This document shows positions 38,593 to 41,867 of a stretch of DNA of 64,000 bases, piece by piece. The stretch is from Heliorestis convoluta (GTDB lineage Bacteria > Bacillota > Desulfitobacteriia > Heliobacteriales > Heliobacteriaceae). The position numbers and the translations under genes were made by a program. The notes under the pieces are model-generated. The model saw nothing but the letters and a program-made list of their open reading frames with translations. It ran no database searches and was not told where the DNA came from. Numbering within the stretch: position 1 is the stretch's first letter; every line of letters begins with the position of its first letter. The stretch lies in contig NZ_CP045875.1 of assembly GCF_009649955.1 (NCBI RefSeq), positions 1,655,501 to 1,719,500 on the forward strand, read 5' to 3'.

Positions 38593-38620
38593 CCTGCCAG
38601 AAGCTCTGGCAGGTTTTTTT
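38593..38620 (+). terminator. Strong plus-strand terminator without an annotated upstream gene
   Basis: CCTGCCAG, loop AAGCT, CTGGCAGG, then seven T residues. On the plus strand the nearest gene upstream is over 2 kb away, so it probably ends the short transcript; its T tract overlaps the FtsA-like stop codon on the other strand. Confidence 0.85.
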
Positions 38621-40796
38621 ATATCCAATAAATCATAACTCGACTCTGGTCCCGTATGGCTGTCATATAATCACCTGGAAAACCATTGACAATAATCTGA
38701 AGGTTCTTTTTTCCAACAGGTGGCGTAGGGTCGAAACCAATTTTTGCTAGCAACTCTGACAGGATAAGTTCTGTAGATTTGCCTGCTAAAATTACAATCT
38801 GATCGCCCTCTTTAAGCCATTCTTCTCCCGTTGCAACTTTTTGATTTACATAAAGTTTTGCTTTTTCACCGGGAAAATTCCATTCTTTGTCGTTGATCAG
38901 AACACGCAGATCCTGTCCATTCCATTGCTTTAGATCCACAATTTCTTTGATCTGCATTTCTGAGACAGTCGCATACTTTAACTCAATTCTGTCGCCTTCT
39001 TTGACCGATCCATTCAATGAAGCGACAGAACCATTTACAGTAAGCTTCGGCATTGATATTAGAACTTTTTTCTTTTCACCATTTAAGGTATAGGAAATGG
39101 AATGTTCTTCTTTTAATGAATCTAGTTGTCCTAGGCAGTCTAAAAGATTAGCGACAGTATCAATAGATTGATACTGTATTTTAGCACCATCTACTAATGC
39201 TGTCTGTAGGGTAACTTTTTTTCCATTCATAAATATCAGAGGCTCTACTTTAACAGGTCTACCGTTAAGAATTACAGCTACAGCGCGTAAAGTCGGTACA
39301 ACATCTTCAATCAATCCTTGCCCATTTTTACCCGTTTGCGATTCTATGAATTCAATGGCATCGCCATGTTGGACAAGACTGTTAAGTTTGGCTTTTTCAC
39401 CATTAACGGACAATTCAGCGCCTTGACCAACAGTTCCTCGTAATATTTTTACTTGACCGTTTACTTCTACAGTGAGGGCCATTCCAGGACGCCCATGTAT
39501 GCTCTGCATGCTAACACCAGCCGAAAGTAAAACGTCTCCTATAGTTCCTTTGCGCATATTTAATAGGCGAACGGACTTTCCGTTAAGCGTAACTTCAATA
39601 AAACTTAAGGTTTGATGATTCAGTGATGTGATTGCAATGCCCACAGGCGTTACATATTCTGGACCTTTCATCGTATTTATGTAACCGGTTAAACCTTTCA
39701 AGCTTTCTCTGCCACGGACACCGACACGTTCACGAGGCAACTCCAATGCTTCAGCTACTTTCTCTGGCAACAAAGGAGTAAGAGAGCCACCACCTATCAA
39801 GATGATTGCTTGTGGACTTTTTTCATTCAATGTAAGGATCTTGTCAGCAATTTGTTGCGCTAGATTGGACACTGTTGGCTCTAAAGTGGCAAGAATTTCT
39901 TCAATTTCATAGCTCTGCTCAAAACCAAGAATATCTTGAAATCTAATTCTTTCTCTTTCTTCTTTTGATAATAAGAGCTGCGCTTGGACATCTTTTTTGA
40001 TTCGTTCACCTTCAACAAAGTCTAAAAGGTACTTTTGACAGATTGCTTCTGTCATTTCATCACCTGCAATAGGAACCATTTCATAAGCTTTTATGGTACC
40101 TTCCGCCGTGATAGCAATATCAGAAGTACCTGCACCTATATCAACAAGTGATAAGTTCAATTGTCTCATATTCGCTGGAATAACCACGTTGATAGCTGCA
40201 ATTGGCTCTAAAGTTAAACTTTTCATGGTTAATCCACATCGTGCTAATACAGAGAAAAGAGAATCAATGACAACTCTTGGCAAAAAGGTGCTGATTACTT
40301 CTACTTCTGCAACTTTTCCGCGTTGTCCTACAAGACTTCCAATGGCTTGTCCTTCTAGAAAGTAATGCATAACACTATAACCAACGCAGTGATAGTCTTT
40401 TACAATATCGTCATCATGCTTTTTAATGGATCGTAAAGAGTTCTGCACCGCTGCTAATTCGAGCGCTAGTTGGTCTTCTACAGAAAATTCTTGAAGGGTC
40501 GTCCATTCTTGTTTCTTTTTACCGATCGTTGTTTTTAGAGTCCTTCCAGCAGCAGCTACCGCAACCGTCGTTAGGGATTGGCCTACTTCTTTTTCGAGAG
40601 CTTGTTTGACTTTATCAACAACTTGTGACACTTGTACTACGTCGTGAATCTGGCCATCTAACATGGCTCTATTCCGATGTTCTTCAATGACCATATGTAA
40701 AATTTCTAGACCTTCTTCGGTTTTTTTTGCCACAAGTCCGATAACGGTGCGCGTTCCAATGTCTAATGCAAAGATAGTTTCATTACAACAGTCCAT
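38619..40796 (-). CDS. FtsA-family actin-like protein with long C-terminal extension
   Basis: A 725-residue protein whose first ~400 residues are an FtsA/PilM-type actin-like ATPase: FALDIGTRTVIGLV is phosphate loop 1, SLVDIGAGTSDIAI (~220) phosphate loop 2, and IILIGGGSLTPLLPE (~335) the adenosine motif; a 1C-like subdomain lies at ~85-180. The C-terminal ~325 residues are repeated beta-rich units (VNGEKAKL..VQHGDAIEFI, LNGEKKKV..VKEGDRIELK, NDKEWNF..LKEGDQIVIL) like small beta-grasp modules. Typical FtsA has ~420 residues. The division cluster lacks ftsA, so this may be the FtsZ anchor or a pilus/cell-surface relative; no C-terminal amphipathic helix is obvious. Confidence 0.75.
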   Translation of the reverse strand: MDCCNETIFALDIGTRTVIGLVAKKTEEGLEILHMVIEEHRNRAMLDGQIHDVVQVSQVVDKVKQALEKEVGQSLTTVAVAAAGRTLKTTIGKKKQEWTTLQEFSVEDQLALELAAVQNSLRSIKKHDDDIVKDYHCVGYSVMHYFLEGQAIGSLVGQRGKVAEVEVISTFLPRVVIDSLFSVLARCGLTMKSLTLEPIAAINVVIPANMRQLNLSLVDIGAGTSDIAITAEGTIKAYEMVPIAGDEMTEAICQKYLLDFVEGERIKKDVQAQLLLSKEERERIRFQDILGFEQSYEIEEILATLEPTVSNLAQQIADKILTLNEKSPQAIILIGGGSLTPLLPEKVAEALELPRERVGVRGRESLKGLTGYINTMKGPEYVTPVGIAITSLNHQTLSFIEVTLNGKSVRLLNMRKGTIGDVLLSAGVSMQSIHGRPGMALTVEVNGQVKILRGTVGQGAELSVNGEKAKLNSLVQHGDAIEFIESQTGKNGQGLIEDVVPTLRAVAVILNGRPVKVEPLIFMNGKKVTLQTALVDGAKIQYQSIDTVANLLDCLGQLDSLKEEHSISYTLNGEKKKVLISMPKLTVNGSVASLNGSVKEGDRIELKYATVSEMQIKEIVDLKQWNGQDLRVLINDKEWNFPGEKAKLYVNQKVATGEEWLKEGDQIVILAGKSTELILSELLAKIGFDPTPPVGKKNLQIIVNGFPGDYMTAIRDQSRVMIYWI

Positions 40797-40868
40797 GGCG
40801 ATCCCCCTGCATGCAAAATGGGTCTCTCTACTTTCGACTTAGCAGCATCATTTTCCTGCAACACCAGC

Positions 40869-40885
40869 GAAACTGTTACACCTCC
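40869..40885 (+). repeat. 17-bp inverted repeat, left copy
   Basis: GAAACTGTTACACCTCC. Its exact reverse complement is at 41190-41206, and the pair encloses the HicA-like gene. Confidence 0.9.
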
Positions 40886-40917
40886 CACCTTCACCCTCCC
40901 TGCCTCAGTAATTGGCT

Positions 40918-41163
40918 TTAGGCGGATAGAAGTCTAAGAAACTTTTCTTTACTGAGGCCTGCTTGTTGTAAGATGCCCATGAGCGTTCCTTTTTTCAAAT
41001 CTTTTTGATTCCCTGGAATGGTTACTGAAAAGACTGCCTTCGGTTCAACTTTCACAAACCTCATATGGCTTCCTTTTTGTCGTCTCTGTTCAAAACCTTC
41101 TCGACAGAGTACTTTCGCAACATCCATTCCTGACAGGGTAGGTAAGCGGTGGGCTATCTTCAT
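40918..41163 (-). CDS. HicA-like mRNA interferase, solitary
   Basis: An 81-residue HicA/YcfA-family protein with a double-stranded-RNA-binding-like fold; HicA toxins cleave mRNA. KGSHMRF carries the catalytic His, VTIPGNQKDLKKGTLMGILQQAGLS the rest of the family pattern. Many HicA have a His in the second block (VPxH), here Asn. ATG 41163 has GGAGGTGA upstream; the frame is open to GTG 41175. No HicB antitoxin gene lies on either side: only 121 bases separate it from the FtsA-like gene and 119 from the 3D gene. A 17-bp inverted repeat encloses it. Confidence 0.85.
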   Translation of the reverse strand: MKIAHRLPTLSGMDVAKVLCREGFEQRRQKGSHMRFVKVEPKAVFSVTIPGNQKDLKKGTLMGILQQAGLSKEKFLRLLSA

Positions 41164-41189
41164 AAACAGCGTCACCTCCAGTTTCTTAA

Positions 41190-41206
41190 GGAGGTGTAAC
41201 AGTTTC
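41190..41206 (-). repeat. 17-bp inverted repeat, right copy
   Basis: GGAGGTGTAACAGTTTC, the perfect reverse complement of 40869-40885; 338 bp from end to end. Confidence 0.9.
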
Positions 41207-41282
41207 TAAGAAGAATTATTCCCTTTCTTTATTCCTTTTACGTACAAGCTTTTTCAAAGCTTCTTGTATAAAGCTGATTTCA

Positions 41283-41867
41283 TTGGTACATGATAGGAAT
41301 GCCTGTCTATTGTTCAAAAAGGAGTTGATAATTCTGTACCAACAATGGATAAAGCTCTCTTTTTCCTTGCTTCTAGCAGGTACACTATGCTTTCAATTCC
41401 TTATCATTGATCCGAAAGAGGCGCTGGCAGAGCGAAAAGTACCTTTTCCTTTGCCCATCTATCATGAACCTGTAAAAACGATGGATCAGATGGTAATGAA
41501 AGGATATCAGATTTCTGTACCTATGGAAGTAGAAGCAACAGCCTATGATGCATGTCTTATATGTTGTGGCAAAACAGATGGCATTACAAAGTCCGGTGTA
41601 CTTGCACAAGAATGGTACACAGTCGCTGTAGATCCGAACTTAATTCCACTAGGGACGAAAATCTATGTACCTGCTTTTGGGCGTGTTTTTGAGGCACAAG
41701 ATATAGGCGGTAGCATACGTGGTCGTAAAATGGATTTTTTTCTACCGGATCATGAATCGGCGCTTCTTTTTGGAAGACAAAGTTTACAAGTCTACTTGTT
41801 AACAGGACCTGATCAAGACAATTTTACCTTGCCCGTAAGCGATACTGTTGATTCAAATTCGCTGTAG
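41283..41867 (+). CDS. 3D-domain exported protein
   Basis: An exported protein with a C-terminal 3D domain (related to the MltA double-psi barrel of lytic transglycosylases) at ~residues 80-175: EVEATAYDACLICCGKTDGITKSG, AVDPNLIPLGTKIYVP, AQDIGG and KMDFFLPDH, with the three Asp that name the domain. A hydrophobic segment (~22-42) is a signal or anchor. The start is uncertain: TTG 41283 is the outer limit; AAAAAGGAG (41316-41324) favours an internal start such as TTG 41325 or CTG 41334. It is likely a cell-wall or spore-wall hydrolase-type protein. Confidence 0.8.
   Translation: MVHDRNACLLFKKELIILYQQWIKLSFSLLLAGTLCFQFLIIDPKEALAERKVPFPLPIYHEPVKTMDQMVMKGYQISVPMEVEATAYDACLICCGKTDGITKSGVLAQEWYTVAVDPNLIPLGTKIYVPAFGRVFEAQDIGGSIRGRKMDFFLPDHESALLFGRQSLQVYLLTGPDQDNFTLPVSDTVDSNSL

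What the first reader, a model, noticed from the sequence alone, without database searches (positions are those of the whole stretch)
40869..41206. Solitary hicA enclosed by a perfect 17-bp inverted repeat
GAAACTGTTACACCTCC at 40869-40885 and its exact reverse complement at 41190-41206 bracket the HicA-like gene, which has no hicB beside it. 338 bp end to end looks like a mini-cassette with terminal repeats, or like the arms of a long RNA hairpin. Toxin genes without antitoxin are normally counter-selected, so it may be inactive, controlled by an antitoxin elsewhere, or moved as a unit.
Basis: partly seen in the sequence, partly recalled or inferred. Interest (0 to 1): 0.55.

Follow-up and report, generated by a model that had tools for sequence, protein, structure and literature searches.

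The report
Toxin gene folded by its mRNA
The two repeats around this lone toxin-like gene look like the two strands of a conserved RNA stem that joins the start and end of the gene's message and competes with a smaller stem hiding the ribosome landing site, so the message's own folding probably controls how much of the protein is made.

Summary
In detail: a perfect 17-bp inverted repeat brackets a solitary hicA. It is not a mobile cassette: the 17-mer occurs only here in the genome, the unit once, and the gene sits between the same two neighbours in 8 of 9 genomes held of the family (heliobacteria); the ninth has no hicA there. What is conserved is an RNA architecture. In 8 of 8 orthologues the arms stay complementary while their letters change: 5 of 14 pairs show changes on both sides, 0 of 500 shuffles reach the paired percentage, and the four G-T deviations pair only on the hicA-sense strand. 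The 5' arm also holds an anti-Shine-Dalgarno, CACCUCC, ten bases before the hicA SD GGAGGUG, and this second pairing is kept in 8 of 8. So the 5' arm can hide the SD locally or pair with the 3' arm beyond the stop codon. Folding predicts mostly the first in transcripts lacking the 3' arm and the second in complete ones, in all eight. No unpaired HicB-type antitoxin scored over its cut-off. Best reading: HicA synthesis is set by its own mRNA fold, reminiscent of type I toxin mRNAs (hok, aapA). The stem is well supported; the direction of the switch, its trigger and HicA activity are inferred.

The parts
41190..41206 (-). 5' arm of the long-range stem, sense GAAACUGUUACACCUCC; its last 7 bases CACCUCC are also an anti-Shine-Dalgarno (aSD1)
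   Evidence: pairs with the 3' arm in 8 of 8 orthologues with changes on both sides and with the SD in 8 of 8
41173..41179 (-). hicA Shine-Dalgarno GGAGGUG, 10 nt after the 5' arm and 9 nt before the ATG
   Evidence: Sequence; invariant in 8 of 8
41173..41196 (-). local SD-masking hairpin: CACCUCC (41196-41190) with GGAGGUG (41179-41173), 10-nt loop
   Evidence: All 7 pairs standard in 8 of 8; predicted in nascent transcripts
40918..41163 (-). hicA, 81 aa, ATG start (the seven relatives carry TTG there), solitary
   Evidence: Pfam PF07927, 61 bits; purifying selection
41140..41145 (-). possible second anti-SD UUACCU (residues 7-8); predicted SD partner in the full-length folds of L009, L010, L011
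   Evidence: TTA codon in 8 of 8, CCT in 7 of 8; partners listed; weak
40954..40978 (-). 3' part of the hicA coding region, residues 62-70, with few synonymous changes; predicted to pair with the start region (GGCCUC with the SD; GGGCAUCUU with 41152-41160)
   Evidence: p = 0.0004 by random codon sets, window chosen after the fact; pairs 94.8% kept with the other inner helices but hardly covarying; SD partner in the folds of L007, L008, L014
40937..40943 (-). AGUUUCU, predicted to pair with AGAAACU at 41180-41186
   Evidence: one A-U to U-A double change, in L014
40869..40885 (-). 3' arm of the long-range stem, sense GGAGGUGUAACAGUUUC, 32 nt after the stop codon and 72 nt before the ftsA-like start
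38619..40796 (-). ftsA-like gene downstream (725 aa), conserved neighbour
41283..41867 (+). 3D-domain gene, divergent conserved neighbour

Best explanation
The inverted repeat is an RNA stem of the hicA message that replaces a protein antitoxin as the control of this HicA. While the message is being made, the 5' arm (CACCUCC) folds onto the SD ten bases downstream and blocks ribosomes. Once the transcript is complete, the 3' arm, 32 nt after the stop codon, pairs with the whole 5' arm over 13-19 bp and displaces the local hairpin. The SD then has only weaker partners in the coding region (such as GGCCUC or UUACCU), so HicA is made at a low rate and only from complete messages; loss of the 3' arm shuts it off again. 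Shown: the long-range complementarity, with compensating changes, and the SD complementarity are conserved in 8 of 8 genomes, on the sense strand. Inferred: that they form in cells, that they exclude each other and gate translation, the direction, and that HicA is an active RNase.
For: Arms covary: 110 of 112 cells paired, 5 of 14 pairs with changes on both sides, 0/500 shuffles reach the paired percentage, slid controls 35-62%. Exchanging 3' arms between species gives 10.7 mismatches on average against 2 (4 of 4142 sampled label permutations at or below). The 4 G-T cells pair on the sense strand only. The changes fall on at least 3 branches by my reading. aSD1:SD is 7 of 7 standard pairs in 8 of 8, and the two varying 5'-arm positions in it (columns 63, 64) change only to letters that pair with both partners. 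Folding: local hairpin 0.87-1.0 in the shortest transcripts; with the 3' arm the long stem is 0.92-1.0 and the local hairpin 0.00, 8 of 8. SD opening cost is lower in full-length than in 3'-truncated transcripts (column 350) in 8 of 8. Longest uninterrupted 5'-3' helix 13-19 pairs, above all 60 shuffles in 8 of 8. The leader model hits 8 of 82 class genomes, one hit each, at this locus. No unpaired HicB over the cut-off.
Against: No expression data; no promoter or transcript end is known, and the one sigma-70-like site found is within chance. One of five covariation measures (further pair types) is no better than shuffles, 219/500. SD opening still costs 4.0-8.8 kcal/mol in full-length transcripts and SD-to-start 11.7-21.4, so the complete message may also be silent; the SD drop against the shortest nascent form is only 0.4-0.6 in L012 and L013, and in L014 the transcript ending at column 270 is easier to open (6.2) than the full one (7.3). 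The nascent hairpin is not stable at every length (0.03 in L012, 0.42 in L013 at column 200). Codon-shuffled controls do not show full-length SD masking to be special. Inner pairings covary hardly (68/500). In two of three genus g5 pairs the quiet codons are not quieter than the rest. Only eight sequences from one family.
Confidence: 0.5

Rival explanations
1. Closed message, as in hok or aapA. Both folds are silent: the local hairpin guards the nascent transcript, and in the complete message the long stem clamps the 3' coding end (GGCCUC, GGGCAUCUU) onto the SD and start codon. HicA is made only after processing removes the arms, for example by cutting of the stem.
For: Nested 5'-3' helices in the consensus fold; paired in 94.8% of cells; quiet synonymous sites in the predicted partner segment, where by my reading the three varying third positions among eight are the three left unpaired (the consensus fold itself favours conserved columns); same logic described for aapA3 with three anti-SDs (passages of PMC6733600).
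Against: Inner helices covary hardly; the SD pairs with GGCCUC in the best fold of only 3 of 8 (L007, L008, L014); a message without its 3' arm would fall back to the strong local hairpin.
Confidence: 0.22
2. The stem serves RNA processing, stability or autoregulation: a double-strand cut (RNase III type) separates hicA from the downstream ftsA-like message, or HicA binds or cuts its own folded message to hold its level constant.
For: In the L007 fold the 18 outer pairs are continued on the 5' side by 9 more, with a side branch on the 3' side; HicA has a dsRBD-like fold (introduction of PMC10865869); conserved downstream gene.
Against: Does not explain why the 5' arm is complementary to the SD in 8 of 8.
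Confidence: 0.2
3. DNA operator pair: two copies of a repressor site flank hicA, and the sites change together with the repressor.
For: Symmetric placement; perfect repeat in the window.
Against: The four G-T deviations pair only on the sense strand; the local SD complementarity is unexplained.
Confidence: 0.05
4. Mobile mini-cassette with terminal repeats.
For: One family member (G004) lacks hicA at the site.
Against: Single copy; same neighbours in 8 of 8 carriers; leader found nowhere else in 82 genomes at E <= 0.001 (stricter filters).
Confidence: 0.02

Closest known systems
aapA3/IsoA3 and hok/Sok type I toxin mRNAs
   Same: Anti-SD a few bases upstream of the SD, 5'-3' long-distance pairing, different folds for nascent and full-length message (passages of PMC6733600)
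   Different: Toxin is a HicA domain, not a small membrane peptide (the latter recalled); no antisense RNA known here; in aapA3 the long-distance fold masks the SD, here folding predicts that it removes the strongest mask
HicA of HicAB type II toxin-antitoxin systems (14 contexts of Gerdes 2024, PMC10865869)
   Same: HicA domain with the GSH histidine
   Different: No hicB beside or fused and no viperin-like neighbour among the genes seen; the arrangement is in none of the 14 classes (section 5 of that paper)
SymE/SymR
   Same: RNA control of a toxin protein related to a type II TA protein, MazE (abstract start in the listing)
   Different: Control there is by an antisense RNA encoded in cis

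Membership tests
HicA family (PF07927) | Full-length match to the HicA profile | tested here: met
   61 bits, positions 2-58 of 58; a profile of the 8 proteins finds four solved sequences at E <= 0.01, three named HicA
HicA family (PF07927) | Histidine of the GSH motif (catalytic role recalled) | tested here: met
   H33 invariant in 8 of 8
Type II HicAB system | Adjacent or fused HicB antitoxin | tested here: not met
   No hicB beside it; PF15919 and PF05534 hits over the cut-off in 9 genomes lie beside other hicA genes; the three genus g5 genomes have none
Type I toxin-antitoxin | Toxin mRNA with masked SD and 5'-3' long-distance pairing | tested here: met
   Covariation for the long stem and conserved aSD1; in silico only, masking not measured
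Type I toxin-antitoxin | Antisense RNA antitoxin | tested here: inconclusive
   No sigma-70-like promoter on the plus strand in 40600-41500; no RNA data
Type I toxin-antitoxin | Toxicity of the protein | not testable with these tools
   Needs expression
Mobile cassette with terminal inverted repeats | Further copies or varied sites | tested here: not met
Known Rfam RNA family | Match to a covariance model | tested here: not met
   No match up to E = 1 in the eight loci L007-L014

The most novel reading that the evidence does not exclude
A HicA-family RNase that has lost its protein antitoxin and is held in check by its own mRNA alone: a switch in which one 5' segment chooses between the ribosome site and the 3' end of the message, so that the RNA fold acts as the antitoxin.
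Probability: 0.4. Interest if true: 0.8.

Novelty: new variant of a known kind. Interest (0 to 1): 0.6.

Why it matters
It would show that a toxin family known with protein antitoxins can pass to control by its own mRNA fold, which would help explain how a toxin gene can persist without its antitoxin. It gives a testable two-state mRNA conserved in most genomes held of one bacterial family. The listings showed me no paper on a solitary hicA or on RNA control of hicA, but they are partly capped and of the HicA papers I opened only PMC10865869.

Tried and rejected
Mobile unit: dropped; target-site duplications were not searched for, since no second copy or clean empty site exists. The G004 site without hicA has 154 bp between the listed reading frames; the nearest match there to any 14-base arm has 5 mismatches, and the leader model finds nothing in that genome. 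Known RNA family: none. Same 5'-3' stem at other hicA genes: one search tested 29 loci (8 target, 21 other); 8 of 8 targets and 0 of 21 others beat all 60 shuffles (four others, L020, L021, L024, L031, passed the 95% mark). One search tested 29 of the 30 loci held (5 target, 24 others, several the same genes as); 5 of 5 targets beat all 40 shuffles, and 1 of 24 others (L060, an 11-bp helix of score 23.0 against 22; targets 34-40) did so marginally.

Codon shuffling, 60 shuffles each: the SD was at least as masked as native in 12, 17, 41, 44, 48, 51, 56 and 12 of 60 (L007 to L014), the start codon in 1, 8, 53, 31, 43, 9, 7 and 33 of 60; so no consistent sign that the coding sequence is shaped to mask the full-length start region. 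An overlapping reading frame as cause of the quiet codons: of the five other frames none is open in all 8 sequences; single frames are open in L009, L010 and L011 only (which replaces a partial count). An antisense promoter in the quiet segment was considered; the TTA/TTG change at one codon would hit its -10 box, and the scan found none.

A Spo0A-like box near the ftsA-like gene was considered from memory and left untested beyond the window.

Full report
WHAT IS THERE. The perfect 17-bp inverted repeat is real and unique in the window and in the genome; the unit has one copy. It brackets an 81-aa HicA (61 bits against PF07927) on the minus strand. On the sense strand the order is: 5' arm GAAACUGUUACACCUCC, 10 nt, SD GGAGGUG, 9 nt, hicA, stop, 32 nt, 3' arm GGAGGUGUAACAGUUUC, 72 nt, ftsA-like gene.

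NOT A CASSETTE. The protein search over 61 genomes (own plus 60 relatives) gave close matches (56-100% identity) in 8 of the 9 family members and only weak ones (at most 41% identity) in 17 of the other 52. In all 8 the gene lies between the ftsA-like and the 3D-domain gene. The ninth, G004, has both neighbours with 154 bp between the listed frames and no hicA there. The gene is therefore fixed at one site and missing there in one lineage.

AN RNA STEM. The arms differ between species but stay complementary. On the 14-pair core, 98.2% of 112 cells are standard pairs, with changes on both sides at 5 pairs in 12 cells. Shuffles reach the paired percentage, the double-changed cells and the covariation score in 0 of 500, the number of double-changed pairs in 7 of 500, and the number of pair types in 219 of 500; slid partners pair in 35-62%. 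The only two mismatched cells are the last pair in L012 and L013. The four G-T cells are G-U pairs on the sense strand and A-C mismatches on the other. Exchanging arms between species raises mismatches from 2 to a mean of 10.7; 4 of 4142 sampled permutations do as well; this, like the shuffles, does not remove relatedness. On the neighbour-protein tree (4 of 9 inner branches open) the double changes fall, by my reading, on at least three branches: the stem of the window's genus, the tip of this genome, and the stem of genus g5. Eight related sequences limit all such counts.

A COMPETING HAIRPIN AT THE RIBOSOME SITE. The last seven bases of the 5' arm are the complement of the hicA SD ten bases on; all 7 pairs are standard in 8 of 8. 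The SD never varies, so this gives no covariation, but the two varying 5'-arm positions in it change only to letters that pair with both partners. Partition-function folding of eight sequences puts the local hairpin at 0.87-1.0 in the shortest transcripts, and with the 3' arm present the long stem at 0.92-1.0 and the local hairpin at 0.00. At intermediate lengths the local hairpin is at 0.85 or more except L012 (0.03) and L013 (0.42) at column 200. The cost of opening the SD falls from 9.2-12.9 kcal/mol in transcripts ending at column 350 to 4.0-8.8 in full-length ones, lower in 8 of 8; the whole SD-to-start stretch is easier too in 8 of 8, but by only 0.2-0.6 in L012, L013 and L014 and still at 11.7-21.4. 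One intermediate (L014 at column 270, 6.2) is easier than its full-length form (7.3).

INNER PAIRINGS. The consensus fold also pairs the start region with the 3' end of the coding region: 94.8% of cells, but one double change and 68 of 500 shuffles as good. In the best full-length folds the SD partner is GGCCUC in L007, L008 and L014, UUACCU near the start in L009-L011, and a nearby stretch of the 3' coding end in L012 and L013. Residues 63-72, which hold most of the two innermost partner segments, have few synonymous changes (mean codon difference 0.20 in 9 codons against 0.56 in 29 others, p = 0.0004 by random sets, window chosen after seeing the data). Against this, in two of the three genus g5 pairs these codons are not quieter than the rest, and codon shuffling does not make the native masking stand out. 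I treat these pairings as possible only.

THE PROTEIN AND ITS ANTITOXIN. dN/dS is about 0.04-0.14 in five pairs of relatives, so the protein is kept. PF15919 antitoxins over the cut-off occur in 4 of 9 genomes, each beside another hicA by position; two partial matches under the cut-off lie in G002 and G006 on contigs without a hicA hit; none in the three genus g5 genomes, whose only hicA hit is this one. PF05534 occurs only in G004, at its own hicAB. Antitoxins of another kind cannot be excluded.

SPREAD. A model of the leader (69 positions) finds 8 of 82 genomes of the class at E <= 0.001, one match each, all at this locus (stricter filters), while HicA itself occurs in 57 of 82. The 5'-3' stem is absent from the other hicA loci tested (one marginal 11-bp case, L060).

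COMPARISON. The design resembles type I toxin mRNAs, where anti-SDs mask the SD during transcription and a 5'-3' long-distance interaction forms in the full-length message (passages of PMC6733600). It differs in the toxin family and in having no known antisense RNA. The 14 HicA contexts of PMC10865869 (abstract, introduction and section 5 seen) hold no solitary hicA of this kind.

VERDICT. An RNA stem conserved by selection: very likely. A fold-controlled HicA without HicB: likely. Direction, trigger and toxicity: open.

Noticed in passing
window 40852-40859 (-): GCAGGAAA is invariant in 8 of 8 genomes between the 3' arm and the ftsA-like start, followed by GTCGAA in 6 of 8; a Spo0A-box-like look is recalled, not tested.
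   Followed up: partly
G000:C1:1398080-1398601 (L004, L034): An ordinary hicA with an adjacent HicB-type antitoxin elsewhere in the same genome; a third, sub-threshold HicA match lies at C1:673485-673652.
   Followed up: partly
window 40949-40958 and 40902-40911: In both genomes of the window's genus GCCTCAGTAA in the hicA coding end (sense) has a perfect complement TTACTGAGGC after the stop codon, which would compete with the GGCCUC-SD pairing.
   Followed up: no
window 41161-41163: This genome has an ATG start thanks to one extra base; the seven relatives carry TTG at that place.
   Followed up: no
L009 and L010, stretch after the hicA stop codon: An 8-9-pair hairpin (CCCTGATTG/CAGTCAGGG) lies between stop codon and 3' arm in the best folds of two genus g5 genomes.
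   Followed up: no
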